Shown piece after piece: positions 2 through 64,000 of a DNA stretch of 64,000 nt (positions are counted from its first letter, which is position 1; every line of letters begins with the position of its first letter). This stretch comes from Anaerolineaceae bacterium (GTDB taxonomy: Bacteria > Chloroflexota > Anaerolineae > Promineifilales > Promineifilaceae): assembly GCA_002699125.1 (NCBI GenBank), contig PABI01000050.1, forward strand, positions 17,435 to 81,434, given 5' to 3'. The translations under genes and the position numbers were made by a program. The notes below the pieces were generated by a model. That model saw nothing but the letters and a program-made list of their open reading frames with translations. It searched no databases and was not told the DNA's origin.

Positions 2-1108
2 GCCAGAGTGGTCGCGATTTCGCAGAACGGCCACTCCTTCGCTCGCATCTCAGACCTGACGCGCAGCGAGGGGCGGATTCCGCTGATGGGGCGCATGTTT
101 GATGATGGCTACACCTTTTTATGGGCACAACGGCCGTATCGCCACCTTCTTGGCGCACAACTTCTGGCCATTGATGGCCATCCCATTGAGGAAGTGATTG
201 ACGCTTTCCGGCCCTACAGCGGCGCGAAAGATAGCTTCTTCAGGCAATACGTGGGTTGGTATCTTGAGACGCCATCGCTGGTTCATGCCGTTGGTTACGC
301 CGAAAACCCGAGGCGCTACACGCTGCGTGTACGGCCGTTTGGCAGCCAGGAACTCATCGAAATTGCAGTTTCGGTATCCGACACGCCGCCCCCGGTGGTG
401 AGTGCCCAAGAGATTTTAACGCCAATGGAGATGGATGGGTGGGAAGGAGTGTGGTCGCAACGGCCGTTACTCCCCTTCTTTCTCCAGGATTGGGAGGCAC
501 CTTTTCAGGCGCAAGCCATTGACGCCATCAATGGCTACTACATCCGGTATGGCGCCAATGACGATGTCGGGGAACACAGCATTACTGCCTTCAATAAGAC
601 CGTCGCTGCTGAATTAGCGCAGCACAACTATGCGGTCCTCATTATCGACCAGCGTGGCAACGGCGGCGGTGACTACACCCGCACCTACGACCTGATGCGG
701 CGGCTGCCGGAATTGGCAGGGGAACAGACGCCAATTTATGTGATCACCGGTCCACTGACCTTTTCGGCCGGTATTTCCAGCGTCGCTTTCTTGAAAGCCA
801 GCGGCGGCGAGCAGGTCACCATTATTGGTACCGAAATGGGCGACCACGAACGGATGTGGGGCGAAACGTCGCTGCTAACGCTGCCCAATTCACAGCTTGA
901 TTTGCAGTTGGCCACCGGCCTCCATGATTACAAAAACGGGTGTCATCAATTTCCAGAATGTTACTGGCTGGATTTTTTCATGAATGTCTCGGCGGCGTCG
1001 TTGTCCCCGGACATCACCATCCCGTTTACTTTTGAAGCATATGTGATGGGGCAAGATGCTGCCATGAACCATATTCTTGAAGCACACAGCAGCGATTCGG
1101 CGCGTTAG
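2..1108 (+). CDS. S41-like (C-terminal processing) peptidase, 5' end outside window
   Basis: The frame is open to the left edge; the first start-like codon is GTG at 8, so the gene is probably truncated by the window. The segment reading LLGAQLLAIDGHPIEEV looks like a PDZ-type turn. The segment VLIIDQRGNGGGD matches the conserved strand and Gly-rich loop of the S41/tail-specific protease fold, followed by a loop with FSAGISS, where the S41 nucleophilic serine usually lies. The usual lysine of the Ser-Lys dyad is not obvious, so activity is uncertain. Such enzymes are normally exported, but the N-terminus is not visible. Downstream, 51 bases separate it from the flavodoxin-like gene. Confidence 0.65.
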   Translation, partial: ARVVAISQNGHSFARISDLTRSEGRIPLMGRMFDDGYTFLWAQRPYRHLLGAQLLAIDGHPIEEVIDAFRPYSGAKDSFFRQYVGWYLETPSLVHAVGYAENPRRYTLRVRPFGSQELIEIAVSVSDTPPPVVSAQEILTPMEMDGWEGVWSQRPLLPFFLQDWEAPFQAQAIDAINGYYIRYGANDDVGEHSITAFNKTVAAELAQHNYAVLIIDQRGNGGGDYTRTYDLMRRLPELAGEQTPIYVITGPLTFSAGISSVAFLKASGGEQVTIIGTEMGDHERMWGETSLLTLPNSQLDLQLATGLHDYKNGCHQFPECYWLDFFMNVSAASLSPDITIPFTFEAYVMGQDAAMNHILEAHSSDSAR

Positions 1109-1159
1109 AAAAGTGACCCATAGAACCATTCAATTTGACAAGTATATAAAGGAAGAAAA

Positions 1160-1786
1160 ATGATGAAAACTCAAAAAAGAAAAGAATCGACCATTAAAAA
1201 ATGGCACTTTCACAATCCTGACCCTGGCAGCAAAAACAAAGACAGCTTCAAAATATTGATTGCCTTCGCCAGCCAATTTGGCAGCACCGGCGAGGTTGCC
1301 GAAGCTATCGGCGATGCTTTATGTCAACAGGATTGTACGGTAGAAATAAAATGGATCAGTGATGTGAATCAGGTAGACGCGTATGATGCCGTTATTGTTG
1401 GCAGTGCCATTCAATATGATAAATGGATGCCGGAAGCGGTGGATTTTGTAAAAACCCATCAAAAAGCGTTAAGCAGCGTGCCAGTTGCATACTTTTTTAC
1501 CTGCCTGACATTGGCAAAAAAGAATACAAAAACTGAACAACAAGCGTTGGTATACGCAGATAAGTTGAGGGCAATATCATCCCAGGTGGTGCCGGTTAGC
1601 GTTCAAGGTTTTGCAGGTGTGGTGGACTTCAGCAAAATGTCTTTTCTCACCCGCATGATGCTTAAAGCCGTCACAACTGTAAACGGTGTTCGGGAGGGGG
1701 ATTATCGTGAGTGGGATGCAATTCACGCTTGGGCACGTTCCGTATATTTCAAACTATCAAATGAAGAATCAAAGGTGCTTGAGTAA
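1160..1786 (+). CDS. Flavodoxin-domain protein (HemG/menaquinone-dependent protoporphyrinogen oxidase-like)
   Basis: The 208-residue product has a hydrophilic N-terminal tail of about 30 residues. After it comes a flavodoxin fold beginning KILIAFASQFGSTGEVAEAI, where the SQFGSTGEV loop corresponds to the FMN phosphate-binding loop. A second conserved strand reads YDAVIVGSAIQYDKWMPEA, as in HemG-type flavodoxins. The start is the first of two adjacent ATG codons after an AAGGAAGAAAA purine tract. It probably carries electrons or oxidises a porphyrin-like or quinone-linked substrate in the cytoplasm. No haem biosynthesis genes are beside it, so only the flavodoxin family assignment is firm. Confidence 0.7.
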   Translation: MMKTQKRKESTIKKWHFHNPDPGSKNKDSFKILIAFASQFGSTGEVAEAIGDALCQQDCTVEIKWISDVNQVDAYDAVIVGSAIQYDKWMPEAVDFVKTHQKALSSVPVAYFFTCLTLAKKNTKTEQQALVYADKLRAISSQVVPVSVQGFAGVVDFSKMSFLTRMMLKAVTTVNGVREGDYREWDAIHAWARSVYFKLSNEESKVLE

Positions 1787-1815
1787 TTGACCCAACCTGT
1801 GTGGCCGTTAGCACT

Positions 1816-1842
1816 ACAATACACCCCCAAATAGAACTTTCG
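1816..1842 (+). promoter_or_regulatory. Shared upstream motif, copy 1
   Basis: The block ACAATAC-AC-CCCCAAA, four bases, then ACTTTCG lies about 40 bases before the small conserved gene at 1884. An almost identical arrangement occurs at 3906-3930 before the alpha/beta hydrolase. The role is unknown; position suggests a promoter or operator element. Confidence 0.25.
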
Positions 1843-1883
1843 ATGGCCGACTGTAACCCACTGATTTTATAGACTAAGACCAT

Positions 1884-2135: not shown

Positions 2136-2161
2136 TCAAATCATTTCAGGAGAAACAAATC

Positions 2162-2566: not shown

Positions 2567-2599
2567 TCGAATCGAAAATTAGTTTGATACAAGGAGATA

Positions 2600-3358: not shown

Positions 3359-3394
3359 CTTTCAAGCTCAATAATTGAACAAGGAGAAAATCGT

Positions 3395-3898: not shown

Positions 3899-3905
3899 AA
3901 GGCAA

Positions 3906-9332: not shown

Positions 9333-9518
9333 ATGTTATATTTTTATGAAAACGAAAAAATGGCCCAAGCTCGCATAGATGCTTATATTGAAGAATCTAA
9401 AGCGCTTCGTCGGGCTGAGAAAGCAAGCCCCAAACGAACCTTCCGCCTGCCTAATTTGAGCAACTTGTTGGCGAATTGGAAAGTTGAGAACAAAACGGCC
9501 GTTGCTAATCAGGCCTGA
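9333..9518 (+). CDS. Small hypothetical protein (61 aa)
   Basis: The ATG lies well spaced after TTAAGGAGTGTGAATC, and a strong intrinsic terminator follows the stop, so this short frame is probably expressed as its own unit. The product is charged and helical, with a basic middle (AEKASPKRTFRLPN) and no signal or membrane segment. I do not recognise a family. It is divergent from the SARP gene, which may control it. Confidence 0.55.
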   Translation: MLYFYENEKMAQARIDAYIEESKALRRAEKASPKRTFRLPNLSNLLANWKVENKTAVANQA

Positions 9519-15767: not shown

Positions 15768-16040
15768 TTACACGCCCAGCACAAAGAGGACGGCCGTTAC
15801 GGCCGCACCTAATCCCACATCACGCCAGGCAACTGTGACATCGGGTACCGTTTTGAACAGCAGGGCAAATATGCTTGTGAGTAACAGGAAACCCAAAACC
15901 ACGTTTAATATCTGAATGACAGGTAAAGAACCTGGCAGCGCCTGACCAATCTGGTTACCCAAAAACGCCAGACGCACCAAACAGCAGCACGGCGACACTG
16001 GTTAACGCCGCCAGCGAGAGACTGGCTGGCTGATTGAAAT
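15768..16040 (-). pseudogene. Remnant of a YihY/BrkB-family membrane protein gene
   Basis: Reading from 16040 downwards, one frame gives SLAALTSVAVLLFGASGVFG and then a stop; LFGASGVFG is a hallmark of the middle of YihY/BrkB proteins. One base out of frame the sequence continues as GNQIGQALPG and, further on, LFKTVPDVTVAWRDVGLGAA, which belongs some 50 residues further along the family. So an internal segment has been deleted with a frame change, the N-terminal half is gone, and a stop follows VLFVLGV, removing the C-terminus. The fragment lies between ctaC and ppa. Confidence 0.7.
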
Positions 16041-19718: not shown

Positions 19719-20107
19719 CATGCACCTCCCTCTGCAATGTGCCGCTATTTGCGGCAAACTACAGAAAGTAAAAACTAATTCTTTTGCTGATTTTATCGGA
19801 ATATAAAGTTGGGGCATATTCCACTTTTGTTGTCCGGCGAATCAATCATTTTGGTATCGTGCTAGCCACGGCCGTTTCCAGTTTGTTACCGATCAAATTA
19901 AGCCTGTGCTAGAATCTATTCGCTTTCACATAAGAATCTAACCGAAAAGCCACAGAGGAAAAAGAGAAATTAGAGAACTTGAGACCAATCTCAAAAATCT
20001 CTGTGAACTCTGTGGCCAATATTCGGATAGGTATTAAGCAAATCACACAAGAGTTTGAGAATTTTTCAAGTAGCAAGAACGAACATGTCAAAGGATCATG
20101 GAGGTGG
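19719..20107. other. Intergenic region with a promoter-like site and an inverted repeat
   Basis: This 389-base divergent spacer has no convincing gene. It holds a short GCCGC-TATTT-GCGGC hairpin near 19740, one ACGGCCGT octamer near 19868, an extended minus-10-like TGCTAGAAT ending at 19915 that could drive the downstream lipoprotein, and the CAGAG-type inverted repeat at 19949-20016. Both adjoining open frames extend into the region, but those extensions lack coding character. Confidence 0.45.
19949..20016. repeat. CACAGAG-type imperfect inverted repeat
   Basis: Arms of 19 bases (19949-19967 and 19998-20016) pair at 15 positions, with an uninterrupted nine-base GCCACAGAG/CTCTGTGGC end. Inside the loop, TTGAGA pairs with TCTCAA across CCAA. 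The same style of repeat occurs at 50328-50407. Confidence 0.6.
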
Positions 20108-35849: not shown

Positions 35850-38147
35850 ATGAAAATTCAAACCATTATTGAACAAATGACCCTTGAAGAGAAAGCGGCT
35901 CTCTGTACCGGTGCCAGCGCCTGGACAACTACACCAGTGGAACGGCTGGACGTGCCGGAAATGATCGTGTCTGACGGGCCGCATGGCGTCCGGCGTGTCC
36001 CCAATGTCCATGAAATGGCATTGGAGAGCTTGCCGGCTACCTGCTTCCCCACCGCCTCCTGTCTGGCTTCTACCTGGGATGTGGACCTGATTCACCAAAT
36101 GGGTGAAGCCTTAGCCGAGGAATGCATTGCTCTGAACGTTGACGTGCTTCTTGGCCCTGGTGCCAACATGAAGCGGTCGCCGCTGGGCGGGCGAAATTTC
36201 GAATACTTTTCTGAAGATCCTTACCTGGCTGGAGAGATGGCCGCCAGTTTCATCAACGGCGTGCAAAGCAAAGGGGTGGGCACATCGCTTAAGCATTATG
36301 CTGCTAATAATCAGGAGTTCCAGCGGTTTAGCATCAGCGCCGAAATAGATGAGCGCACCCTGCGGGAAATTTATTTGCCTGCTTTTGAAAAGGCGGTCAA
36401 ACAGGCGCAGCCGTGGACAGTGATGTGTGCCTATAACAAGGTCAACGGCACCTTTGCTTCTGAACATGACATCTTGCTTAACAAAATATTGAAGGATGAG
36501 TGGGGCTTTGCCGGCCTGGTTGTCTCAGATTGGGGGGCGGTGCGTGATCGAGTAGCGGCATTAAAAGGCGGTTTGGATTGGGAAATGCCCGGCCCGCAAG
36601 GACGTCGCGTCCAAGAAGTTGTCACGGCCGTTCGCTCTGGCAAGTTGGATGAAGCCGTTTTGGATGAATCTGTGCGCCGCATTTTGCGCATTGTCTTCAT
36701 GGCCGCAGAAACGCCCAAAGGGTCCAATGGTTCCATTGGGGGTGAGTTTGACGTGGATGCTCACCACGAACTGGCGCACCACATTGCCACAGAAGGGTTA
36801 GTTCTCCTCAAAAACGATGGTATTTTGCCGCTCAAGGGGCAGCAGCAGATTGCGGTGATCGGCCGTTCGGCCGAACAGGCACATTTCCAGGGCGGTGGCA
36901 GCTCGCACATCAATCCCACCAAAGTGGCCGTGCCGTTTAAGGAGCTCAAAGCCCAGGCCGGAGATGCTGAAATTACGTATGCTCAAGGCTACCCCACTGA
37001 TGATTCTTTCCGTCAGGATTTGATTGATGAAGCCGTAACGTTGGCTCAGGCTGCCGATGTGGCCGTGCTCTACATTGCTTTGCCCACCTTCAAAGAATCC
37101 GAAGGTTACGATCGCACCGACCTCGACCTGACAGACCAGCAGGTAGCTTTGATTAAAGCGGTGGCCAGAGTGCAGCCGCAGACCGTCGTGGTGCTTAACA
37201 ACGGCGCGCCGTTGGCTATGAGTGCCTGGATTGACGAGGTTGCGGCCGTTCTTGAAGGTTGGATGATGGGGCAGGCAGGCGGTACGGCCGTTGCCGACAC
37301 CCTCTTTGGCAAAGTGAATCCAAGCGGCAAGCTGGCGGAAACATTCCCGCTGAAACTGGCCGATACACCAGCCCATCTCAACTGGCCGGGCGACGCAGGA
37401 AAAGTGCACTATGGCGAAGGGCTGTTCATCGGCTACCGCTACTACGATGCCAAAGAGTTGCCGGTTCTGTTTCCCTTTGGCTACGGGCTGAGCTACACCA
37501 CTTTTGAATATAGCAATCCCCAAGTCTCTGCGAAAACTTTTAAAGATTTGGGCGGCGTGACGGTTTCGGTAGAGGTGACAAACACAGGCGATGTGTTTGG
37601 TAAAGAAACGGTGCAGGTGTATGTCTGTGACAAGCAATCGGGATTGGTACGGCCGTACAAAGAACTCAAAGGGTTTGCCAAGGTAGCCCTCCAACCGGGT
37701 GAGACAAAAACGGTCTCCATCGACCTCGATTTCCGTGCCTTTGCCTATTACCATCCTGAATACCGGCAATGGATTACCGAGGATGGCGAGTTTGATTTAC
37801 TCATCGCGGCCTCGGCGGCGGATGTTCGCCACGCCCTGACGGTGACCCTGGAATCCACCCTGGAGCTGCCCTGCATTCTGGACAAAGAATCGACCGTGCG
37901 CGAATGGATGGCTGATGCACGTGGTCAGGCTGTATTTGGCCCGTTTTACACCCAGATGGAAGCTGAGGCGCGCAAAATGTTTGGCAGCGGCGACGAGCGC
38001 TATGGTAACGATGGGGCCATTGGCATGGACATTATGGAGATGTTTAATGACATGCCGTTGGTGAGCGTGCTGATGTTCCAACAGCACACGCTGCCGACGC
38101 ACCCTGAGGATATGGTCGCTGATCTTTTACAGCAGGTACATAACTAA
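35850..38147 (+). CDS. GH3 beta-glycosidase, copy 1
   Basis: The 765-residue protein has the complete GH3 layout: an N-terminal TIM barrel with SDGPHGVR, GRNFEYFSEDPYLAG and KHYAANNQE, and the nucleophile D227 in VVSDWGAV. A second alpha/beta domain (about 290-560) and a C-terminal fibronectin-like domain (VSVEVTNTGDVFGKETVQVYV) follow. The fibronectin-like domain points to beta-glucosidase or xylosidase rather than NagZ-type activity. There is no signal peptide, so it is cytoplasmic. It starts 20 bases after the deacetylase gene, with AAAAAGAGATA as ribosome site. A paralogue lies at 40704. Confidence 0.93.
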   Translation: MKIQTIIEQMTLEEKAALCTGASAWTTTPVERLDVPEMIVSDGPHGVRRVPNVHEMALESLPATCFPTASCLASTWDVDLIHQMGEALAEECIALNVDVLLGPGANMKRSPLGGRNFEYFSEDPYLAGEMAASFINGVQSKGVGTSLKHYAANNQEFQRFSISAEIDERTLREIYLPAFEKAVKQAQPWTVMCAYNKVNGTFASEHDILLNKILKDEWGFAGLVVSDWGAVRDRVAALKGGLDWEMPGPQGRRVQEVVTAVRSGKLDEAVLDESVRRILRIVFMAAETPKGSNGSIGGEFDVDAHHELAHHIATEGLVLLKNDGILPLKGQQQIAVIGRSAEQAHFQGGGSSHINPTKVAVPFKELKAQAGDAEITYAQGYPTDDSFRQDLIDEAVTLAQAADVAVLYIALPTFKESEGYDRTDLDLTDQQVALIKAVARVQPQTVVVLNNGAPLAMSAWIDEVAAVLEGWMMGQAGGTAVADTLFGKVNPSGKLAETFPLKLADTPAHLNWPGDAGKVHYGEGLFIGYRYYDAKELPVLFPFGYGLSYTTFEYSNPQVSAKTFKDLGGVTVSVEVTNTGDVFGKETVQVYVCDKQSGLVRPYKELKGFAKVALQPGETKTVSIDLDFRAFAYYHPEYRQWITEDGEFDLLIAASAADVRHALTVTLESTLELPCILDKESTVREWMADARGQAVFGPFYTQMEAEARKMFGSGDERYGNDGAIGMDIMEMFNDMPLVSVLMFQQHTLPTHPEDMVADLLQQVHN

Positions 38148-38156
38148 AACCAAAGC

Positions 38157-38188
38157 CAGGGCTGCGAGCTTATTGCCCGCAGTCCCTG
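38157..38188 (+). terminator. Hairpin between GH3 copy 1 and GH2
   Basis: CAGGGCTGCG pairs with CGCAGTCCCTG with one bulged base, over a loop of about 11. No T run follows, so it is at most an mRNA-stability or weak pause element. An ATG at its 3' edge (38189) is not used as the GH2 start. Confidence 0.35.
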
Positions 38189-38212
38189 ATGCTAACAACT
38201 GAAGGCTCTAAA

Positions 38213-40687
38213 ATGAAATCTCAATCTTTAACCGGACAATGGCATTTTCGACAAACAGGAACAGATGAATGGTTGCCCGCCACTGTGCCTGGTGGTGTGC
38301 ATACTGATTTACTGGCCCTGGACCGCATTCCCGACCCTTTTGTGGGCGATAATGAAAAACGCGTGCAGTGGGTGGCTGAAGCCGATTGGGAGTACCGTAC
38401 TCGGTTTGCTGCCACGCCAGACCTTTTACAACAATCGCAAATCTGGTTGGTTTGTGATGGACTGGATACGCTGGCGACGGTGATGTTAAACGGCCGTTCT
38501 CTCGGCCAGGCCAACAATATGTTTCGCCAATACCGCTGGGACGTCAAGGAACTGCTCCAGGCGGAAGAGAACGAGCTATTGATCTCCTTTGCCTCTCCTG
38601 TGCAATACGCTGTCGCCAAGCAGGCCGAACGCGTCATGCCCGGCGTTTCTCAAGCCATTCCCGGTGGTCCTTATTTGCGCAAAGCGCCCTGCCAGTTTGG
38701 TTGGGATTGGGGACCGCAGCTGCCGCCCATCGGCGTCTGGAAAGATACACGCCTGGAAGGATTTAGCCGCGCCCGTCTGGCTGATGTGCATCTGCGCCAG
38801 AGCCACAATGATGGGCCGGTGACGATTTCTGCAGCGCTGACGCTGGATCGCTTCACGGATGAGGCGTTGACGGCGCGGCTGCACGTGGTGACGCCGGATG
38901 GGGCGGAGATGGAAGTGGAAACGGCCGTTTCTGCCGCAACAACCAGTCTCAACCTCACCATTCCCAACCCGCAGCTCTGGTGGCCCAACGGCTATGGCGA
39001 CCAGCCACTCTACCAGGTGACTGTAACTGTATACCAGGGCGACACAGAACTGGACCAACGAAGCTACCAGCTTGGCCTGCGCACCATCGTGCTGCGCCAG
39101 GACGCCGACGAATGGGGCCGTTCTTTTGAATTTGTCGTCAACGGCGTGCCCGTTTTTGCCAAAGGGGCTAACTGGATTCCAGCCGACTCCTTCCCCACGC
39201 GGATCAGCGACGAGTACCTGGAAGCGCTCATTCGCGGCGCGGCCGAGACGCACCAAAACATGCTGCGCGTCTGGGGCGGCGGCTTCTTTGAGGAAGAACG
39301 CTTTTACGATTTATGCGACAGGTACGGCATCCTGGTCTGGCAAGATTACATCTTTTCTTGCAGTGTTTATCCGCTGGATGACCCGGACTTTGTGGAAAAT
39401 GTGCGCATCGAGGTGGCAGAAAACGTGCGCCGCCTGCGCCACCGCGCCAGCCTGGCCCTCTGGTGTGGCAACAACGAAATGGAATGGGGCTGGGCCGATT
39501 GGGGCTGGACGCGGCCCGATTTGGCAGATATGAAAGCGGCCTACGATCGCTTCTTCCACCACACGCTGGCCGACTGGAGCACCACGATTGATCCCGATAC
39601 GCCGTATTGGCCCAGCTCGCCGTCGTCGGATACGCCTTTCGAGAATCCGAACGGGCAGCAGCAAGGGGATGCGCATTATTGGGATGTGTGGCACGGCCGT
39701 AAACCATTTACCGCCTACCGCAGCCAGTTTCCCCGCTTCATGAGTGAATTTGGCTTCCAGGCGTTGCCGCCGCTGTCCACCATCCGTACCTATGCCGACG
39801 AAGCCGATTGGAACATGACCTCCTACATTATGGAGCAGCACCAGAAGAACGACAGCGGCAACAGCCTGATGGTAGGGCAAATGTTAGATACGTTCCGCTT
39901 GCCCAAAGATTTTCCGTCGCTGGTTTATTTGAGCATGGTGCTGCAAGCTGAAGGGATTCGCTACGGCGTGGAGCATTGGCGGCGGTCCCGTGATCGGGTC
40001 GCGGGCACGCTGTATTGGCAGCTCAACGATTGCTGGCCGGTTGCGTCGTGGTCCAGCCTCGATTATTTTGGCCGCTGGAAGGCGCTGCATTATGCGGCCC
40101 GTCGTTTCTACGCCCCGGTGCTGCTCTCCATAGAAGATGATCCGCCGCGCCAGGGCATTTTTGTGACCAACGATCAATGCGATGGGTGGAACGGCCGTGT
40201 GCAATGGTCCCTGGCTACGCTGTCTGGCGAGATGGTGCTTGCCGGCGAGGAAGCGGTTCAGGCCGCTCCGCTGACGACAACCCACATCAGCACGCTGAGC
40301 TTTGCCGATCAGGTAACAGAGGACAACCGGCGGAACCTGATCTTCATCGCTGAATTGTGGCAGGACAGCCGTCTTGTCGCCCGGCAAACCGCTTTCTTTG
40401 CGCCGACAAAACATTTACAGCTAACCAACCCGCAAGTGGCGGTCACCTGTCGCTATGAAAATGACCTGCTGCATATTGAACTAAACGGCCGTTCCCTGGC
40501 CCGTCTGGTCGAACTCTCATTTGAAGCTGCTGACGTTGTTTTTAGCGATAACTACTTCGACCTGCCTGCCGGCCAATCCGTAACCATAACCTGCCCGCTG
40601 CCGCCAGGATGGGATGTTTCCCAGGCTGAGACAGCGTTACGCATTCGCTCTGTCTATGATTCGTTCACACATGGTTCAATAATTTGA
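38213..40687 (+). CDS. GH2 beta-mannosidase-type glycosidase
   Basis: The 824-residue protein has the GH2 order: N-terminal jelly-roll (LTGQWHFRQTGTDEW to NNMFRQYRWDV), GPYLRKAPCQFGWDWGPQLPP, an immunoglobulin-like domain, then the barrel. The acid/base is E422 in WCGNNEMEWG and the nucleophile is E512 in FMSEFGFQALPP; these motifs with GWDWGP are characteristic of beta-mannosidases. There is no signal peptide. The start is ATG 38213 after GAAGGCTCTAAA; the ATG at 38189 lies in a hairpin. It is flanked by two GH3 genes and probably cuts mannose from the same imported oligosaccharide. Confidence 0.93.
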   Translation: MKSQSLTGQWHFRQTGTDEWLPATVPGGVHTDLLALDRIPDPFVGDNEKRVQWVAEADWEYRTRFAATPDLLQQSQIWLVCDGLDTLATVMLNGRSLGQANNMFRQYRWDVKELLQAEENELLISFASPVQYAVAKQAERVMPGVSQAIPGGPYLRKAPCQFGWDWGPQLPPIGVWKDTRLEGFSRARLADVHLRQSHNDGPVTISAALTLDRFTDEALTARLHVVTPDGAEMEVETAVSAATTSLNLTIPNPQLWWPNGYGDQPLYQVTVTVYQGDTELDQRSYQLGLRTIVLRQDADEWGRSFEFVVNGVPVFAKGANWIPADSFPTRISDEYLEALIRGAAETHQNMLRVWGGGFFEEERFYDLCDRYGILVWQDYIFSCSVYPLDDPDFVENVRIEVAENVRRLRHRASLALWCGNNEMEWGWADWGWTRPDLADMKAAYDRFFHHTLADWSTTIDPDTPYWPSSPSSDTPFENPNGQQQGDAHYWDVWHGRKPFTAYRSQFPRFMSEFGFQALPPLSTIRTYADEADWNMTSYIMEQHQKNDSGNSLMVGQMLDTFRLPKDFPSLVYLSMVLQAEGIRYGVEHWRRSRDRVAGTLYWQLNDCWPVASWSSLDYFGRWKALHYAARRFYAPVLLSIEDDPPRQGIFVTNDQCDGWNGRVQWSLATLSGEMVLAGEEAVQAAPLTTTHISTLSFADQVTEDNRRNLIFIAELWQDSRLVARQTAFFAPTKHLQLTNPQVAVTCRYENDLLHIELNGRSLARLVELSFEAADVVFSDNYFDLPAGQSVTITCPLPPGWDVSQAETALRIRSVYDSFTHGSII

Positions 40688-40703
40688 GAGAAAGGAGTTA
40701 AAC

Positions 40704-43007
40704 ATGACCGATATTCAATCCATCATTGCTCAAATGACCTTGGAAGAAAAAGCGGCGCTTTGCACAGGAGCTAGCGCCTGGTCGACTACTCCTGTGGAGC
40801 GCCTGGATCTCCCTGAACTGGTCGTTTCAGATGGGCCACATGGCGTCCGTCGCCAACCGGATGTTCATTCGATGGCCGAAAAAAGCCTGCCCGCCACTTG
40901 CTTCCCCACTGCCTCAAGCCTGGCGGCCACCTGGGACACTGATCTACTGTATGAGATGGGGCAGGCGCTGGCAGAAGAAGCTATTGCCCTAAAAGTAGAT
41001 GTGCTGCTGGGTCCCGGGGCAAATATGAAACGCACGCCTTTGTGCGGCCGTAACTTTGAATATTTTTCCGAAGACCCATATTTGGCCGGAGAATTGGCCG
41101 CCAGCCTCATCAATGGCATTCAGAGCAAAGGAGTAGGCACCTCACTCAAGCATTTTGCGGCCAACAATCAGGAATTTGAGCGGTTTGCCATCAGTGCTGA
41201 GATTGACGAACGGACCCTGCGCGAGATTTATTTGCCGGCGTTTGAAACGGCCGTTACCAAAGCCAAACCATGGACCGTCATGTGTGCCTACAACAAGCTC
41301 AACGGCACCTATGCCTCCGAACACCAGCGCTTGCTCACCGATATCCTCAAAAATGAGTGGGGCTTCGAAGGGTTTGTTGTCTCTGATTGGGGCGCGGTGC
41401 ACGATCGCGTGGCTTCCCTGAAGGCGGGGCTGGACCTGGAAATGCCTGGTCCCAAGCAGATGCGCGTCAATTCCGTCATTGAAGCGGTGCGCGATGGGGC
41501 GTTGGATGAGGCGGTGCTGGATGAATCCGTACGTCGCATCTTGCAGGTTGTTTGCCAGGCGGCGCAAACGCCCAAAGGGTCCAATGGTTCCATTGGGGGT
41601 GAGTTTGACATCGCTGCTCACCACGCCCTGGCGCGTAAAGTGGCCGCCGAAGGGATGGTTTTGCTGAAGAACAACGGCCTGCTGCCGTTGCAAAACCCGC
41701 AGCACATTGTCGTGATCGGCCGGGCAGCGCAAAAAGCCCACTTCCAGGGTGGCGGCAGTTCCCACATCAACCCCACCCAGGTAGATGTACCCTTCAATGA
41801 GCTGCAAAAGCTGGCTGGCGCTGCCGAATTGACGTTTGCACCTGGCTACCCTGAAGGGGCCGAGTTTGAACAAGGTTTGATTGATGAAGCCGTGGCTGCC
41901 GCCCAGGTGGCCGAGGTGGCGCTGCTCTATATCGCGTTACCTACTTTTAAGGAGTCTGAAGGGTACGATCGTCCGGATTTGGATTTGACAGAACAACAAG
42001 TAGCGTTGATTCAGGCGGTTACGGCCGTCCAGCCCAACACCGTCGTCATCCTCAACAATGGTGCGCCTGTGGTTGTTAGCGATTGGATCGACGGCACGGC
42101 TGCCGTATTAGAAGCGTGGATGATGGGTCAGGCAGGCGGCGGTGCGATTGCCGACATACTTTTTGGCCGCATTAACCCCTCTGGCAAACTGGCGGAAACG
42201 TACCCGGTTAGATTGACCGATACACCTGCCCATCTCAATTTTCCTGGTGAAAATGGGGTGGTGCGTTATGGTGAAGGTCTGTTTATCGGCTACCGCTACT
42301 ACGATGCCCGTGAAGTGCCGGTCCAGTTTCCGTTTGGCTATGGCCTGAGCTATACCACCTTTGCTTACAGCAATCCGCGAGTTTCAGCAGATGCGTTTAA
42401 TGACGTGGATGGTGTAACGGTTTCAGTTGATGTGACAAACACGGGGCCGGTGGCCGGTAAAGAAGTTGTGCAGGTGTATGTTCATGACCAGCAGGCGCGA
42501 TTGATACGGCCGTGCAAAGAGCTCAAAGGCTTTGTCAAGGTAGAATTACAGCCGGATGAGACCAAAACAGTGACGATCCCGCTCGATTTCCGGGCCTTCG
42601 CTTACTACGATCCAGCCTACTGCCAGTGGGTTACCGAAAATGGCCAATTTGATATCTTGATTGGCGCCTCTGTGGCCGACATTCGCAGCACCGTAACCGT
42701 AACGCTGCAATCAACGCTGGAACTGCCCTCTGTTTTGCACCGTGAATCAACCATCCGCGCCTGGCTGGAAGATCCCCACGGCAAAAAAGCGTTTGAGCCG
42801 ATGTACCAGCAAATGATGGGCCATTTGACCCGGATGTTTGGCGGCAGCGATGAAAACGGCAGCGACACGATTGGCATGGATACAACCGGGTTTATTTTGG
42901 ATATGCCCTTACTAAGCCTTCTCCATTTTCAGGAAGAAGCATTGACGCAGCCAGCCGATGACATCGTCGATCTTCTGCTGGCACAAGTGCACGGGGTGAA
43001 GGCATAA
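40704..43007 (+). CDS. GH3 beta-glycosidase, copy 2
   Basis: The 767-residue product is closely similar to the GH3 copy at 35850 throughout, with nucleophile D228 in VVSDWGAVHDR, FAANNQEFERF and the same fibronectin-like C-terminus. A 44-base stretch (41566-41609) is identical to 36709-36752 in copy 1. The paralogues probably differ in linkage or aglycone preference. It is cytoplasmic, with no signal peptide. It starts 16 bases after the GH2 gene, with AAAGGAGTTAAAC as ribosome site. Confidence 0.93.
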   Translation: MTDIQSIIAQMTLEEKAALCTGASAWSTTPVERLDLPELVVSDGPHGVRRQPDVHSMAEKSLPATCFPTASSLAATWDTDLLYEMGQALAEEAIALKVDVLLGPGANMKRTPLCGRNFEYFSEDPYLAGELAASLINGIQSKGVGTSLKHFAANNQEFERFAISAEIDERTLREIYLPAFETAVTKAKPWTVMCAYNKLNGTYASEHQRLLTDILKNEWGFEGFVVSDWGAVHDRVASLKAGLDLEMPGPKQMRVNSVIEAVRDGALDEAVLDESVRRILQVVCQAAQTPKGSNGSIGGEFDIAAHHALARKVAAEGMVLLKNNGLLPLQNPQHIVVIGRAAQKAHFQGGGSSHINPTQVDVPFNELQKLAGAAELTFAPGYPEGAEFEQGLIDEAVAAAQVAEVALLYIALPTFKESEGYDRPDLDLTEQQVALIQAVTAVQPNTVVILNNGAPVVVSDWIDGTAAVLEAWMMGQAGGGAIADILFGRINPSGKLAETYPVRLTDTPAHLNFPGENGVVRYGEGLFIGYRYYDAREVPVQFPFGYGLSYTTFAYSNPRVSADAFNDVDGVTVSVDVTNTGPVAGKEVVQVYVHDQQARLIRPCKELKGFVKVELQPDETKTVTIPLDFRAFAYYDPAYCQWVTENGQFDILIGASVADIRSTVTVTLQSTLELPSVLHRESTIRAWLEDPHGKKAFEPMYQQMMGHLTRMFGGSDENGSDTIGMDTTGFILDMPLLSLLHFQEEALTQPADDIVDLLLAQVHGVKA

Positions 43008-44262: not shown

Positions 44263-46839
44263 TTACGGGACGGTAATTTGCGTAAGAAGAACGGCCGTTT
44301 CTGCCGGTGTGTTGGGGTTGGAAACGGCCGTTAAACGAATACCGGTCGCTTCATCATACCAGCCAACCGAAAGGTCATAGGTTCCGGCGGGAACGTCAGC
44401 CAGGGACAAAACCACGGTTTCATGAACTCGCTCGCCCGGCGCCCAGGCCGTGGTCAGGTACGACCAGCCGCGTGGTGCGGCATCCACCTGGGCCACCACT
44501 TCGCCACTGGCTGGATCAACCAGATGGACAAAAAACTTATAGGATTGGTTCATTGCTGCTTCGGCTTGCCAGTAAAATGTCAGGTGCAGCGCCTCATTTT
44601 CCAACGCAAAATCATAGGCAGGAAGGCTGATTTTATCAGCCCAATTCACCTGCGCTGTGGCTTCAGGTGTGTATGCTTCCACGGTTACAGTTCCCAAAAC
44701 TGTCGCTTCAAAATTGCTTTCCGTGGCGGCTTGCCAGGTTAATTTGTATTGGCCCGGCGGCACGGCCGTTTCTACCGGCAGTTCCGCACTCATCTGCCAC
44801 AAATCATTGGCCTGCCACGGGCCGGGCAGCACCTGGCACTGCACCTGCACGATGTGATTGGTCTCGTCGCGCAGCTGCAAGCAGGCTTCACGGCCTGCAC
44901 TGGCTGCCGCCCGACTGCCCAGGCGCGCATCAACTTTGATGATGCCATTGGCAACGGCCGTATCCGGATTAACGGTCCAACGAACCAGCCCGATTTCTGG
45001 CGTCAGCATGGTGGTGAGCTCATATTCCTGCCCGGCAGTAGGGTTTGTTGTGTAGACAACCAGTTGCTCATCCTCGTGAATGGGCGTCATGGTTAACCAG
45101 TCACGCCACGCAGCCATCTGTCCTGGGGCCGCCAACGCCTTATGCAGCACAATGTATCGAACGTCCGCTTCGTGTAGCAAGGAGAGCTGGCGGCCAATAT
45201 CTTGTCGTTTAATCTGTACGGCCGCCTCACTTTGCAGCTCTGCCAAAAGCGGCACCTCTTCCCAAGAGGCCAGCGCCTCGCGCGGTATGCGAGCGACCTT
45301 GCCGTTCACCAGCGGCTGGCCGTGAACGGTCTGGTAATACATGTAAAATTTGTTGAACTCGTGCTCGTGGTTGGGTAGATGCAGCAGGGCAAAATCGTCC
45401 GGTTGCTGTTCTAACTCAGCCAGCCAGGCGGGCACAGCCGTACTGCTAACCGGATAAGGAAAGGCCGCATATTCAGCCAGCACCAATACGCTGATGACAC
45501 CCACCAGTGCCGTTTGGCGGGACGGCCGTTTCACTTTTTGCAAAATGGCCCGGCAGCCAAACCCGGCAAGCAGGGAGATGGGCAGCCCCAGTAAAATATT
45601 GATGCGGTCCGTCAGCCGCAGCAGGCGCAGCAGCGGATTATCGGCCAGCAGCCGGTAAGGCATCGGCACCTCCGGATACAGCACGCCGTTTATACGCAAG
45701 ATGGGGCCAAGCGCCAGCAGAACCAGCACCACCGCCATGAACGACCAGGTGCGCGAATGAGGATACGCGGCCACGGCACCAACTAAAGCCAGCAGCAGGA
45801 CCGAGTAGCCTAGAAACGGCCGTCTCTGCTGATTTTGTATGTCAAAATTGTCGTGGAAAGGGCCGAATACGGCCGTTAGCGTGGAATCCCAAAGCGGATG
45901 CAGCGGCGAGGGGGTGACGTAGGCCAGCAGGTCCGTCTGCTTTTGCGCGTGCTCATCCAGATACAAATCTTCTGGATTGTCGCGGCGAAGCTGGTAGGTG
46001 GCCACGGGAATGGCAATTGGCAGCAGCAAAACGGCCGTGACGCCACCGGCCAGTAGCAGCCAGTGCACGCTTTTTTGCCGATCGGTCCAGCTTTGTGGCC
46101 ACAGCAGCGCCAGACCATAAATGGTGACGGGGATGGCGGCAATCACCAAAAGCTGCCAGCGTACCCAGCCCGTCAGCGCCAGGCAGATGCCTGCCAGCAG
46201 CGCTGGCTGAAAACGCTGTTTCTGCACCGTGCGCCGCGAAAACAGCAGTGCCAGCGGCACCCAGGCCACAAACAAGAAGTTGGGATGTTCGTTTTGGGTC
46301 AGCACGTAGGGCCAGAAGGCAAAAATCAGCCCGCTAACAAACGCGACGGCGCGATTGCCTAGAATCTCACGTGCCAGTAGATACATGGCTGCGCCGTTGG
46401 CCGCTAAAACGACAAGGAACAGCATGTTGTAGGCGGCAATGCTGCCCAGCACCGCCTGGAGGGGAATCCAGAGCAAAATTTGCAGCCAGGCGATGTTGTG
46501 GTTGGCGAGTGAAACGCCCGTTGGGTAAAAAATCTGGGTGGTAAAATAAGGAGATTGGCCGCTTAACAGGGCATCACGAACCCAATGGAAGGTCCACAAA
46601 TGAGAGTAGATGTCCACGCCTTCTCCGGCAATCATGCTGCTCAAATTCGCTGCAACCGGCCACGTCATGAGGGCAGCCAGGAACAGATATAGCAGGGCCA
46701 CCGGCACCAGCCACCGATCTCGTTGCTGGGGGTGGCTCCTGGATGTGGGGGAAACAGCTTGCCCTGAGCGGCGATCTGGGTCGCATGCCGAAGGGGCCGT
46801 TTCCAACGCTTCCTGTTCTGCTGTGGCCTGAGCATCCAT
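44263..46839 (-). CDS. Polytopic glycosyltransferase-like membrane protein with C-terminal beta module
   Basis: The 858-residue protein has about 11 membrane helices in its first 480 residues, starting WLVPVALLYLFLAALMTWPV. The first extracytoplasmic loop has GEGVDIYSHLWTFHWV, in the place of the acidic catalytic motif of GT-C/PMT-like enzymes. The last 350 residues are extracytoplasmic and end in a beta-rich module (FYWQAEAAMNQSYKFFVHL to GTYDLSVGWYDEATGIRL) that is clearly related to the end of the divergent DUF2079 gene. The ATG at 46839 is chosen; GTG 46857 is possible. Substrate unknown; it may use polyprenyl-phosphate sugars. Confidence 0.65.
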   Translation of the reverse strand: MDAQATAEQEALETAPSACDPDRRSGQAVSPTSRSHPQQRDRWLVPVALLYLFLAALMTWPVAANLSSMIAGEGVDIYSHLWTFHWVRDALLSGQSPYFTTQIFYPTGVSLANHNIAWLQILLWIPLQAVLGSIAAYNMLFLVVLAANGAAMYLLAREILGNRAVAFVSGLIFAFWPYVLTQNEHPNFLFVAWVPLALLFSRRTVQKQRFQPALLAGICLALTGWVRWQLLVIAAIPVTIYGLALLWPQSWTDRQKSVHWLLLAGGVTAVLLLPIAIPVATYQLRRDNPEDLYLDEHAQKQTDLLAYVTPSPLHPLWDSTLTAVFGPFHDNFDIQNQQRRPFLGYSVLLLALVGAVAAYPHSRTWSFMAVVLVLLALGPILRINGVLYPEVPMPYRLLADNPLLRLLRLTDRINILLGLPISLLAGFGCRAILQKVKRPSRQTALVGVISVLVLAEYAAFPYPVSSTAVPAWLAELEQQPDDFALLHLPNHEHEFNKFYMYYQTVHGQPLVNGKVARIPREALASWEEVPLLAELQSEAAVQIKRQDIGRQLSLLHEADVRYIVLHKALAAPGQMAAWRDWLTMTPIHEDEQLVVYTTNPTAGQEYELTTMLTPEIGLVRWTVNPDTAVANGIIKVDARLGSRAAASAGREACLQLRDETNHIVQVQCQVLPGPWQANDLWQMSAELPVETAVPPGQYKLTWQAATESNFEATVLGTVTVEAYTPEATAQVNWADKISLPAYDFALENEALHLTFYWQAEAAMNQSYKFFVHLVDPASGEVVAQVDAAPRGWSYLTTAWAPGERVHETVVLSLADVPAGTYDLSVGWYDEATGIRLTAVSNPNTPAETAVLLTQITVP

Positions 46840-50407: not shown

Positions 50408-50542
50408 GCCCGGTGTTTTTTGAGAATCTTATCATAAAATTGGCGGGTTAGTGGGACACGGAACGGCCGTTTTGTGATAATCTAGTAGTGAACCCGTTCA
50501 ACCCGGCCTGACGAGGCTGTCAGGTTTTAAGAAGAGGAACTC

Positions 50543-60727: not shown

Positions 60728-60832
60728 GTCAGTGAACAACGACCCGCAGGTCGGTAGTCAGTGATTTTCACGCTCCCGCTGGTTTATGGTACAGTTGGCG
60801 CTCATCCATAAATTTGCGGGAGTTTTGTTTGT

Positions 60833-62341: not shown

Positions 62342-62347
62342 TTGGGA

Positions 62348-62635: not shown

Positions 62636-62939
62636 TTTTCAATTCTTCCGCAATTTTCCTCAGAATGTGAGCCGGTATAGAATCCCGCTCACTTTTTCCA
62701 TAGACGGTCAGCAACCAAATTTCACTGTCCGTTACCTGCCAATAGTAGATTATCCGAACACCGCTACTTTTACCCTTGCCCCGGATGGCCCAGCGTAGTT
62801 TTCTAACGCCGCCCGATCCTCTGATGATTGCTCCTGCATCAGGTCGCAGCAACAGAAACTTTTGTAATCCAAGGTATTCATCATCGGACAGATATTTGCT
62901 GATAAGTTTGGTAAAGTTGGATGTTTCAATGAAAACCAT
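62628..62939 (-). CDS. RelE/HigB-like toxin
   Basis: A 103-residue protein with the order typical of the RelE/HigB superfamily (DUF1044-like): FTKLISKYLSDDEYLGLQKFLLLRPDAG, GSGGVRKLRWAIRGKGKSSGVRIIYYW and IWLLTVYGKSERDSIPAHIL. The RKLRW, GVRIIYY and Y-x-K-x-E segments hold the positively charged and aromatic residues used for ribosome-dependent mRNA cleavage. The ATG at 62939 is chosen because the earlier in-frame ATG (62957) lies within the operator palindrome. Confidence 0.85.
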   Translation of the reverse strand: MVFIETSNFTKLISKYLSDDEYLGLQKFLLLRPDAGAIIRGSGGVRKLRWAIRGKGKSSGVRIIYYWQVTDSEIWLLTVYGKSERDSIPAHILRKIAEELKNE

Positions 62940-62947
62940 GTTGAGAT

Positions 62948-62966
62948 TATACGGCATAGCCGTATA
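62948..62966. promoter_or_regulatory. Palindromic operator of the toxin-antitoxin pair
   Basis: TATACGGC-ATA-GCCGTATA is a perfect 8+3+8 palindrome directly upstream of the toxin start at 62939, where the HTH antitoxin is expected to bind and repress transcription. Confidence 0.65.
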
Positions 62967-63090
62967 TCATTCAAGTAAAGTTAAATAAGGGAATTGTTTC
63001 TTAAAGGTTTACAGTAGCAAACAAATTCGGCATAATTAGCACGCACCAAGTTGCAGTACCTGACGAATTCATACGCAAAGGCAACGTCTT

Positions 63091-64000
63091 GTGGACGACC
63101 GTAAACGGGCCATTGACGCCACGCAAGCTACCATTCATACTCTTCGTAAGATTGCCTACACACAGAAGGTGCATGAATTGTCGTCCTTGTCCTTGCCCGA
63201 AATTGATAAGCTGGTGGCTGCCATTGCCCGGTATGCGCCAGCCGGAAACGTCCCCAGCGTGATCCTCAACGGCTTGCTGCGCTTGCCCAGCCGTAAGCCG
63301 CCGGCCAAAACCGTTAAACGAGACATTCATCTGCTCTTCAAAGGAATAGACCAGGCGTTGTTAGATAAAGCGGTGTACGGTACGTTTTTTGCCGGCCCGG
63401 CGGCCGTTCTCTGGGCGTACCAAAATTTGCTGAAGCTGGCCGGGAAAGAGGTAGATGCCTCATTCCCCGAAGGTATCTGGCAGTTTTATATCGATTATGC
63501 CCTGCGTGATGACACCGCCCGCCATGCCTGCGAAACCCACGGCTTCGACACCACCTTGCGCCAACATGACATCCGCCTCTCCCCGGTGGATCGGGTCACC
63601 GCCTGGGCGATGACGGCCGTTTACTGCCTGCACCAATATTACAATCTGCTGGAAAACGAGTGGCGCGAGCGGGTCTATACCTCTACGCTGCGCGAACTGA
63701 CTGCCAAGCTCCCCGACCGCGAACGCTTTGCCGATTTGTACACCCGCTGGGAACGGTTACGGCCGTACGGCCGTGGCGCTGATGTGCAGCCTCAGGAAGA
63801 TTATCCCGCCTACCGCCGCCGCAAATTTGACAACTTCTTGGCCCCTGCCCTGGCTGATTTATCTGCCTCAGTGCGTACCGAATGGGACAAGAAGATTGCG
63901 GCGGCTGAAGCCGATGCCTTGCCTGCTTACCAACAGCAGCTCAGCATTCGCGCCTATTTGGAACCGGCGCTGTACGGTGAAGAGCGCAAGCCGGTCCCGC
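63091..64000 (+). CDS. Unrecognised large soluble protein, 3' end outside window
   Basis: An open frame from GTG 63091 runs to the window edge without a stop (303 codons). The product is soluble and helical with conserved-looking landmarks: NVPSVILNGLLRLPSRKPP, YGTFFAGPAAVLWAYQNLLKLAGK, FPEGIWQFYIDYALRDDTARHACETHGF and RVTAWAMTAVYCLHQYYNLLENEWRERVY. The His- and Asp-rich RDDTARHACETH could bind metal. It is faintly like DUF2515 proteins, but I cannot name the family. AAAGG lies about 10 bases upstream. No signal peptide. The frame carries ACGGCCGT three times, in keeping with native genes. Confidence 0.65.
   Translation, partial: MDDRKRAIDATQATIHTLRKIAYTQKVHELSSLSLPEIDKLVAAIARYAPAGNVPSVILNGLLRLPSRKPPAKTVKRDIHLLFKGIDQALLDKAVYGTFFAGPAAVLWAYQNLLKLAGKEVDASFPEGIWQFYIDYALRDDTARHACETHGFDTTLRQHDIRLSPVDRVTAWAMTAVYCLHQYYNLLENEWRERVYTSTLRELTAKLPDRERFADLYTRWERLRPYGRGADVQPQEDYPAYRRRKFDNFLAPALADLSASVRTEWDKKIAAAEADALPAYQQQLSIRAYLEPALYGEERKPVP
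63759..63774. repeat. Two abutting copies of the dispersed octamer ACGGCCGT
   Basis: ACGGCCGTACGGCCGT. The same self-complementary octamer occurs about 90 times in the window, for example at 130, 331, 460, 44291, 44324, 50463 and 62308. It reads as Thr-Ala-Val, Asn-Gly-Arg or Arg-Pro according to frame and occurs on genes of both strands and in spacers. Confidence 0.9.

What the first reader, a model, noticed from the sequence alone, without database searches (positions are those of the whole stretch)
130..63774. A highly iterated palindrome, ACGGCCGT (often AACGGCCGTT), pervades the window
I counted about 90 exact copies of ACGGCCGT by eye in 64 kb; about one is expected for any octamer at equal base frequencies. 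Copies occur in genes on both strands, in all three reading frames (giving frequent TAV, NGR and ERP tripeptides) and in spacers such as 19868 and 50463. Two copies abut at 63759-63774 and two lie 33 bases apart near 44291/44324. This resembles HIP1 (GCGATCGC) of cyanobacteria but is a different word. It may reflect a solitary methyltransferase, a chromosome-organising or uptake signal, or a repair bias. The core GGCC fits a HaeIII-like methylase.
Basis: partly seen in the sequence, partly recalled or inferred. Interest (0 to 1): 0.78.

Follow-up and report, generated by a model that had tools for sequence, protein, structure and literature searches.

The report
Genome-wide palindrome with switching dialects
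An eight-letter DNA palindrome recurs about every 680 bases through a bacterial genome whose nearest named relatives are Anaerolineae (Chloroflexota); sister genera spell its outer letters differently, some phages carry it too, and on average the chromosomal copies sit between mirrored skews in base composition, so the word likely marks where a still unknown DNA-repair or recombination machine acts.

Summary
Observation confirmed. The window holds 94 ACGGCCGT (about 1 expected); the genome holds 11,907, against 403 for the reversed word. Synonymous-codon shuffling does not explain it. In the family, 28 of 52 genomes carry it at 0.5/kb or more. Of the 35 counted for other spellings, two use TCGGCCGA, one GCGGCCGC; another uses TGCCGGCA. 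Some only over-use the core CGGCCG. Copies are conserved in place between congeners (130 of 184 identical; composition-matched octamers 15%).

New: all 16 sampled sets with over 10 octamers show, on average, mirrored GC skew around the word, at synonymous sites too: G-rich 5', C-rich 3', fading over about 100 nt. Hexamer-only genomes show little or none, E. coli GATC none. Some phage contigs carry the word (one 2.6/kb) with skew only in the inner 18 nt; other phage-like contigs lack it.

The HaeIII-like methylase is not supported: GGCC is not the unit. C5-methyltransferases do not track the octamer, nor does one conserved divergent methyltransferase; PF01555 enzymes as a class cannot be excluded. 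Best reading: a HIP1-like word that likely seats a strand-polar repair or recombination process; its reader is unknown. New variant of a known kind.

The parts
130..63774 (.). All 94 copies of ACGGCCGT (8 bases each, palindromic). Starts: 130, 331, 460, 3620, 3842, 4037, 4133, 4437, 4781, 4853, 5051, 5291, 6547, 6665, 7997, 8296, 9495, 10494, 10561, 11458, 12632, 13828, 15316, 15395, 15790, 16853, 17328, 17774, 18077, 18908, 19868, 20270, 20393, 21398, 24191, 24682, 25048, 26490, 26776, 30357, 31000, 31135, 32096, 32819, 36624, 37284, 37649, 38490, 38921, 39693, 40191, 40485, 41247, 42021, 42506, 43279, 43700, 44026, 44291, 44324, 44762, 44954, 45522, 45816, 45869, 46031, 46944, 47381, 47916, 48170, 48267, 48597, 48974, 49928, 50261, 50463, 51711, 52726, 55226, 55874, 58569, 58624, 59025, 59249, 59856, 59999, 60911, 61268, 61912, 61961, 62309, 63613, 63759, 63767
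   Evidence: exact search; order-1 expectation 0.98; synonymous-shuffle expectation 11.8 +- 3.2 in ORFs against 91 counted there
63759..63774 (.). Two abutting copies of ACGGCCGT
44291..44331 (.). Two copies 33 bases apart (starts 44291 and 44324), both in the AACGGCCGTT form
19868..19875 (.). Intergenic copy (ACGGCCGTTTCC context)
50463..50470 (.). Intergenic copy
9495..9502 (.). Intergenic copy
15790..15797 (.). Intergenic copy

Best explanation
ACGGCCGT is a highly iterated palindrome, present 11,907 times in this genome and conserved in place between congeners, and it likely serves as the seat of a strand-polar DNA repair or recombination process, a HIP1-like word that would act like a two-way Chi signal. 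Shown: one dominant octamer per strict genome (an A, T or G outer base on a CGGCCG core in 31 of 52 family genomes, T and G having been counted in 35 of them, and TGCCGGCA in one); purity of the word at orthologous sites; on average a mirrored GC skew at synonymous sites around chromosomal copies (G-rich and C-poor 5', C-rich and G-poor 3'), specific to the full octamer and alike for an unrelated word; and some phage contigs that carry the word at or above host density but lack the outer skew. Inferred: an unidentified protein recognises the octamer; from it DNA is opened or resected in a fixed polarity, so that the strand 5' of the word on each side is more often single-stranded or resynthesised; over time this writes the skew into the chromosome, while selection, or word-restoring repair, keeps the word. 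The inner 18 nt of flank, shared by phages, would be recognition context; the outer tail, found in hosts, would be accumulated footprint. Phages that meet this process would keep the word because it helps their DNA survive; others have none. The core hexamer, over-used more widely in the order, may be a separate and older layer, perhaps a methylation site.
For: Copy number and controls. Exclusive dialects from whole-genome counts: G016 GCGGCCGC 12,040 against 83 A-words and 65 T-words; G033 TCGGCCGA 9,414 against 198 A and 354 G; G009 7,668 against 85 A and 75 G. G013: 14 A-words, 3,665 TGCCGGCA. Conservation, eight directed congener comparisons pooled and not independent: 130 of 184 ungapped sites identical, 7 with one mismatch; composition-matched octamers 559 of 3,829 identical, 1,117 with one mismatch. 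Skew: third codon positions 1-15 nt 5' +0.556, 3' -0.487, ORF average -0.026, 771 words. Octamer-specific: both outer bases wrong about 0, one wrong +0.15/-0.16. Window alone 0.366 within 30 nt against 0.001 +- 0.033 in 2,000 phase-matched placements. Seen in 16 of 18 sets tested with an octamer (the other two have 10 and 2 copies; in the G dialect it starts only beyond 9 nt), absent or weak in 11 of 11 sets tested with the hexamer. No covariation across the palindrome, so no hairpin. At two-fold codons within 15 nt C falls from 0.486 to 0.269 5' and G from 0.454 to 0.283 3'. Conserved words have more skew (+0.294/-0.251) than words present in one of two genomes (+0.244/-0.077). Phages; outer skew missing in them (18-30 nt -0.001 +- 0.013 against +0.100 +- 0.012 in G000).
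Against: The base spectrum is not simple cytosine deamination: at four-fold sites within 15 nt 5' C is replaced mainly by G (0.335 to 0.513) and A (0.130 to 0.215), not T (0.173 to 0.117), and at two-fold C/T sites the 3' side is not consistent (C 0.632, then 0.444 at 15-30 nt), so selection for flank composition is an alternative. Plain GGCC outside CGGCCG has a small mirrored skew of its own (+0.12/-0.13). E. coli GATC, where MutH nicks (recalled), shows none, so mismatch-repair nicking in general does not make it. HIP1 on a Trichormus plasmid shows only a weak version, barely above its GATC control beyond 9 nt. Phages are mixed: of seven Terminase_6N-bearing contigs in word-rich bins two are above host density, two below, three have none; for two of them (G001:C805, G002:C17) copies are too few to settle the outer skew. 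Word density (1 per 676 bases) is far above E. coli Chi (recalled).
Confidence: 0.4

Rival explanations
1. Methylation-directed HIP as proposed for cyanobacteria by Elhai 2015: a solitary methyltransferase modifies the core CGGCCG, and mismatch repair biased by the methyl mark creates and keeps the octamer.
For: Density (1,478 per Mb) lies in the range of about 500-2,500 per Mb given there; one-base deviations pile up at the first and last base, as for HIP1 (abstract); outer-base variants are known in cyanobacteria (TCGATCGA); PF01555 as a class has a match in all 26 strict-octamer genomes (below the cut-off in G005) and 10 of 13 others; a divergent PF01555 methyltransferase, M690, matches in 27 of 35 family genomes, partial matches counted; two word-rich phages carry a PF01555 methyltransferase near the terminase.
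Against: M690 is missing from G014 (95% complete, 6,514 words, full skew), from G005 (78% complete) and from G027, and present in hexamer-only genomes: 22 of 26 strict genomes against 8 of 13 others (my tally). G014 has other PF01555 genes (9 matches), so a stand-in is possible. PF00145 has no match in several word-rich genomes. M690 carries DPPY, and GCGGCCGC of G016 has no adenine, so an adenine methylase could not mark that dialect. E. coli GATC has no skew.
Confidence: 0.22
2. The word is the site of a nucleoid-associated or segregation protein (ParB- or MatP-like) that needs a site about every 700 bases; flank composition is selected to help binding or wrapping.
For: Near-Poisson spread, slight excess in genes (1.41 against 1.12 per kb), extended palindromic consensus GGAAACGGCCGTTTCC, carriage by some phages.
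Against: A skew that fades smoothly to about 100 nt on each side, is alike for an unrelated word (TGCCGGCA, 30 copies) and is missing beyond 18 nt in phages is hard to get from protein contacts.
Confidence: 0.18
3. A DNA-uptake word accumulated by biased transformation (molecular drive), with genus-specific dialects as in Neisseriaceae.
For: Dialects parallel those of uptake sequences (PMC3630211, seen as search listing and abstract opening only; their density is recalled); non-insertional spread through all three frames.
Against: Palindromic, whereas known uptake words are not (recalled); free phage genomes need no uptake word; competence genes were not examined.
Confidence: 0.1
4. Pure mutational by-product: a context-dependent mutation or repair bias makes the octamer and its flanks without any function.
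For: Same skew for an unrelated word; stronger at conserved words.
Against: Dense words in phages that lack the outer skew, strong conservation in place at 73-79% identity, and a winner-takes-all octamer rather than a spread of related words.
Confidence: 0.1

Closest known systems
HIP1 (GCGATCGC) of cyanobacteria
   Same: Palindromic GC-rich octamer, about 500-2,500 per Mb, one-base deviations mostly at the outer bases, palindromic extension of the flanks in some genomes.
   Different: Different word and phylum; no matching methyltransferase established here; strong octamer-specific GC-skew cusp, of which HIP1 on one Trichormus plasmid shows only a weak form.
Alternate HIPs of cyanobacteria (TCGATCGA, GGGATCCC, GGCGCC and others)
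   Same: Another word replaces the main one in some genomes, including an outer-base change on a conserved core.
   Different: There the exceptions are sporadic; here three outer bases of one core, each exclusive to its genome, plus an unrelated word, within one family.
DNA uptake sequence dialects of Neisseriaceae
   Same: Dialects within one family (listing and abstract opening of PMC3630211); density near 1 per kb and accumulation by substitution are recalled.
   Different: Those words are not palindromic (recalled) and are bound by ComP (abstract openings); no link to competence shown here.
Chi sites of RecBCD/AddAB
   Same: Would explain polarity of the flanks (3' tail ending at the word) and carriage by some phages (recalled from general knowledge).
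   Different: Chi is not palindromic and is rarer in E. coli (recalled); no exonuclease tested here.
GATC with Dam/MutH in E. coli
   Same: Palindromic site that directs strand-specific repair (recalled).
   Different: No GC-skew cusp at 240 GATC sites in 50 kb of K-12.

Membership tests
Highly iterated palindromes (HIP, Elhai 2015) | Palindromic octamer at about 500-2,500 per Mb, far above expectation | tested here: met
   1,478 per Mb; 407 against 10.9 by order 2 in 336 kb
Highly iterated palindromes (HIP, Elhai 2015) | Deviations from the word concentrated at the first and last base | tested here: met
   Outer G or T 4.9-5.3x expected (outer C 1.15x), core changes 0.4-2.1x in 400 kb of G000
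Highly iterated palindromes (HIP, Elhai 2015) | Main word replaced by an alternate palindrome in some relatives | tested here: met
   T in G009 and G033, G in G016, TGCCGGCA in G013; also L007 (T) and L006 (G)
Highly iterated palindromes (HIP, Elhai 2015) | A methyltransferase able to modify the word is present in word-rich genomes | tested here: inconclusive
   PF00145 without a match in several; PF01555 as a class in 26 of 26 strict and 10 of 13 other genomes, M690 in 22 of 26 and 8 of 13; other methyltransferase families not searched; specificities unknown
Restriction-modification target | Site avoided in the host genome and its phages | tested here: not met
   Strong over-use in hosts and in some phages; though three of seven terminase-bearing contigs have none
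DNA uptake sequence | Non-palindromic word bound by a competence pilin, taken up preferentially | not tested
   The word is palindromic (sequence); uptake and competence genes not examined
Chi recombination hotspot | Attenuates RecBCD/AddAB and directs recombination | not testable with these tools
   Needs biochemistry; the enzyme genes were not searched
MutH-type hemimethylation-directed repair site | Flank signature shared with E. coli GATC | tested here: not met
   Folded skew at GATC +0.020 +- 0.021 (0-9 nt) and about 0 further out, against +0.35 in G000

The most novel reading that the evidence does not exclude
A palindromic, two-way Chi-like signal: every copy is a point from which a host nuclease-helicase or nickase opens DNA with fixed polarity, the chromosome carries the accumulated scar of this as a GC-skew cusp around some 12,000 words, lineages switch the word's outer letter together with the unknown reader, and phages carry the host's word to pass as self. 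A GC-skew cusp would then be a general, sequence-only test for which iterated words are acted on and which are merely abundant.
Probability: 0.22. Interest if true: 0.88.

Novelty: new variant of a known kind. Interest (0 to 1): 0.72.

Why it matters
HIP1 has been known for decades without an agreed function (recalled). Here is a second large system in another phylum, with one word, three spellings of its outer base, an unrelated replacement word, hexamer-only relatives and phages, all in one family, so cause and effect can be compared genome by genome. The octamer-specific skew is a measurable footprint: it separates acted-on words from abundant ones, argues for a strand-polar process, and can be looked for at any iterated word, HIP1 included. 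Practically, the word would be a sharp marker for cleaning metagenome bins of this lineage and for assigning phages to it.

Tried and rejected
Codon use as the cause: rejected by synonymous shuffling. GGCC or a HaeIII-like unit: rejected. C5-methyltransferase PF00145 as the determinant: presence does not follow the word. PF01555 as a class: too widespread to tell, a match in 36 of 39 genomes and missing only from three without a strict octamer (G007, G011, G023). M690, the best single candidate: conserved (1,511 proteins at E <= 0.001 among 7,997 scored, two of them labelled DNA methyltransferase of Candidatus Leptofilum in the 120 listed), but absent with the octamer present (G014) and present with hexamer only (G006, G022, G026, G035-G037); its tree puts rows of one word type near each other, with weak deep support. 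Hairpin or cruciform: no covariation. Insertion element: the word sits in all frames inside long ORFs. MutH-like repair: E. coli GATC and CCWGG have no cusp. Phage methyltransferase as a relative of M690: only motif-level similarity. Whole-genome Markov table: not possible. A plasmid search with a typed HIP1-like query gave no useful cyanobacterial list.

Rows dropped or of mixed standing: in the pooled viral skew I used 18 of the 20 dense viral loci (L311 and L316 left out); several of the 18 are pieces of one contig. Host G000 there is without the contigs under 0.9 words per kb. G005 (10 copies) and G032 (2 copies) are too few to judge. G027 (0.51 A-words per kb) counts as strict in my tallies but was tested with the hexamer, where its skew is weak. 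The 17 extra family genomes G059-G075 were counted for the A word only. G013 is 62% complete and partly masked; its skew rests on 30 copies.


Full report
What is there. The window holds 94 exact copies of ACGGCCGT where an order-1 model expects 0.98 and an order-3 model 4.3. In ORFs 91 copies stand against 11.8 +- 3.2 after shuffling synonymous codons inside each gene, and in 343 kb of ORFs from 20 contigs plus the window 450 against 59.6 +- 7.5. Among NNGGCCNN words with at least 10 copies only this one (7.4x) and its half-word GCGGCCGT (5.5x) are strongly raised. The whole genome (8.05 Mb, 188 contigs, 8.4% stated contamination) has 11,907 copies, one per 676 bases; the reversed word has 403.

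Who the organism is. The nearest named relatives by cytochrome oxidase subunit I are Anaerolineae genome bins; the closest (71%) is JADLAX010000088.1, isolate SJ142, whose contig length of 73,594 equals that of G002:C88, so G002 is probably that bin. Two relatives of a conserved methyltransferase are labelled Candidatus Leptofilum, at 85-86% identity. The window itself is unnamed; a Leptofilum-like Chloroflexota is my inference.

Distribution and dialects. In the same family 28 of 52 genomes have ACGGCCGT at 0.5 per kb or more (up to 2.1 per kb); 20 genomes of 20 other families of the class have at most 180 copies each. Family members that lack it are not all blank. Of the 35 also counted for other spellings, G009 and G033 have 7,668 and 9,414 TCGGCCGA and G016 has 12,040 GCGGCCGC; G013 has 3,665 TGCCGGCA and, in 20.5 kb read, one CGGCCG. 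In each of these the A word is near background: one dominant octamer per genome. Two named loci show the same: L007 (JAUIAP010000014, TCGGCCGA) and L006 (JAGNBF010000005, GCGGCCGC). In samples of 18-62 kb each, G007, G019 and G027 over-use the bare hexamer CGGCCG 7 to 13 fold over an order-1 model, mostly without a fixed outer base (G027 leans to the A word, 0.51 per kb genome-wide), and G006, G022, G026 and the order-level relatives G035-G038 do so 3 to 5 fold (by order 2 the excess is 1.5 to 8 fold). G011, G023 and G029 show no marked excess in the 7-28 kb read. The core hexamer is thus a wider layer than the octamer.

Conservation in place. Window and sampled contigs of three congeners align at 73-79% identity. 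Of 184 ungapped word sites, pooled over eight directed comparisons that are not independent, 130 are identical, 7 differ by one base and 47 by more; composition-matched octamers are identical in 559 of 3,829 cases and one-off in 1,117. Words are mostly kept or gone, seldom half-broken. In ctaD of six loci (the window and five others) the words lie at different places by raw position (not codon-aligned), which suggests that sites turn over.

The flanks: a GC-skew cusp. The folded logo extends to GGAAACGGCCGTTTCC and beyond. At third codon positions around 771 coding words the skew (G-C)/(G+C) is +0.556, +0.316, +0.192, +0.106 in successive 15-nt steps 5' and -0.487, -0.226, -0.112, -0.117 in steps 3'; the average over the ORFs is -0.026. 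In the window alone the folded value within 30 nt is 0.366, against 0.001 +- 0.033 (maximum 0.122) in 2,000 placements in the same genes and phase. The effect belongs to the octamer: CGGCCG with both outer bases wrong gives about 0, with one wrong +0.15/-0.16 near the word. Among controls GCCGGC and ACGGC stay within 0.11 without a mirrored pattern, GCAGCTGC (60 copies) is noisy and not mirrored, and GGCC outside CGGCCG has a small mirrored value, +0.12/-0.13. It is seen for the A, T and G words and for TGCCGGCA. By set it is present in 16 of 18 tested with an octamer; the other two have 10 and 2 copies. In the G dialect it begins only beyond 9 nt. Of 11 sets tested with the bare hexamer nine show none worth the name and two (G019, G027) a weak one. 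Noncoding words show it too (59 words, +0.149/-0.192 within 30 nt). There is no covariation across the palindrome, so no stem. At two-fold codons within 15 nt the 5' side trades C for T and the 3' side G for A; at four-fold codons the 5' side trades C mainly for G and A, which simple cytosine deamination does not predict, and the 3' side at C/T codons is not consistent between bins. Conserved words have more skew than words present in one of two genomes, and the word-less homologous sites have little (+0.130/-0.012).

Controls elsewhere. Neither GATC nor CCWGG in 50 kb of E. coli K-12 shows it. HIP1 on 350 kb of a Trichormus plasmid (224 copies) shows a weak form: +0.185, +0.068, +0.050, +0.045 from 0-9 to 30-45 nt, against +0.197, +0.030, +0.008, +0.027 at other GATC sites of the same plasmid. 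I call that suggestive only.

Phages. A scan of IMG/VR for the 16-mer consensus gave 29 loci; 20, from 13 contigs, have over 1 word per kb and 9 have one or two words. Proteins from 8 of the 13 contigs were scanned; 5 of the 8 have head, tail, packaging or lysis genes. This sample was chosen by the word and is biased upward. Less biased: the terminase of one (80% DNA identity) led to contig G002:C24, 48.6 kb, with terminase, major head, tape-measure and tail-spike matches and a DNA methyltransferase, and 126 words, 2.59 per kb against 1.67 in its host bin. A search with Terminase_6N gave ten places in 8 of 39 genomes; seven contigs are in word-rich bins: G002:C24 and G001:C805 (1.78 per kb) are above their hosts, G002:C17 (0.85) and G025:C308 (0.78) below, and G021:C679, G021:C117 and G000:C2 (20 of 37.6 kb read) have none. 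Of 20 terminase relatives in IMG/VR, 18 have none or one copy of the word, and the other two lie on contigs already found by the word. Phage words (G002:C24 and 18 viral loci pooled, 454 words) keep the inner skew (0-9 nt +0.165, 9-18 nt +0.084) but not the outer (18-30 nt -0.001 +- 0.013; hosts +0.08 to +0.11). In G001:C805 and G002:C17 the 18-30 nt value is +0.07 with errors of 0.04 and 0.06, undecided.

Methyltransferases. PF00145 has a match in 19 of 39 genomes and none in several word-rich ones. PF01555 has a match in 36 of 39, missing only from G007, G011 and G023, none of which has a strict octamer, so as a class it cannot be excluded. One divergent PF01555 protein, M690 (motif I near residue 105, DPPY near 506, a long insert between), is split over two contig ends in the own genome (C142 and C79) and occurs through the family and in three of four order-level relatives. 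It matches 22 of 26 strict-octamer genomes and 8 of 13 others (tally; partial matches counted). G014 has the octamer and the cusp without it. I therefore do not name it as the determinant.

Interpretation. What is shown: a HIP-type word, dialects, site conservation, an octamer-specific mirrored skew, and mixed carriage by phages. What is inferred: since an unrelated word shares the same skew polarity, the skew reflects a shared strand-polar process at the word rather than the taste of one binding protein. Since phages have the inner but not the outer skew, the inner part would be recognition context and the outer part a footprint gathered over chromosomal time. Loss of C on the strand 5' of the word is the polarity expected if 3' tails ending at the word are exposed, as after 5' resection or at Chi (recalled); the four-fold spectrum says that deamination is not the whole story. 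The most likely function is thus a repair or recombination signal; a methylation-directed variant, a nucleoid site, an uptake word and a mutational by-product remain as rivals.

Known or not. Searches of the paper library for HIP1 and iterated palindromes, HIP1 with GC skew, Chloroflexi with over-represented palindromes, HIP1 with cyanophages, Leptofilum/Promineofilum with palindromes or methylation motifs, and CGGCCG with Chloroflexi and methylation showed no report of this word or of a skew at HIPs among the listed rows; lists were capped at 8 to 15 rows of up to 2,300 papers, and the library lacks most subscription journals. Of Elhai 2015 (PMC4390886) I read the abstract, sections 2.3, 2.4 and 2.5 and part 1 of 2 of 3.4. 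A 2018 study of selection on HIP1 is recalled, not read.

Noticed in passing
L144 (G000:C1), L146 (C20), L148 (C40), L159 (C150), L160 (C160): Five of 20 sampled contigs of the window's genome bin have none or one ACGGCCGT over 9.5-17 kb; with 8.4% stated contamination these are likely foreign or mobile, and the word could serve to clean the bin.
   Followed up: partly
L509 (G000:C2:1-20000): A contig with a weak terminase match has no ACGGCCGT and no CGGCCG at all in 20 kb at 54% GC, as if the hexamer were avoided.
   Followed up: no
window 19945-20037: An imperfect inverted repeat (CCACAGAG ... CTCTGTGG) at the 5' end of a GH18-like ORF matches many places in three congeners; a small dispersed repeat.
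   Followed up: no
G013: A family member with 3,665 TGCCGGCA and almost no CGGCCG (1 in 20.5 kb), with its own GC-skew cusp (30 copies): a full change of word, not just of the outer base.
   Followed up: partly
L331:9698-10948 and G002:C24 (L487:4279-5403): Two word-rich phages carry a PF01555 DNA methyltransferase near the terminase; that of L331 has a TSPPY motif, as in N4-cytosine enzymes (motif reading recalled); the two share 38% identity over 82 residues only.
   Followed up: partly
window 27445-27580: The start of an oligopeptide-binding-protein-like gene also matches several places in congeners, perhaps a shared leader or a family expansion.
   Followed up: no
window 35850-43007: A run of glycoside hydrolase genes (two GH3, one GH2 mannosidase-like); looks like a polysaccharide-use locus.
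   Followed up: no
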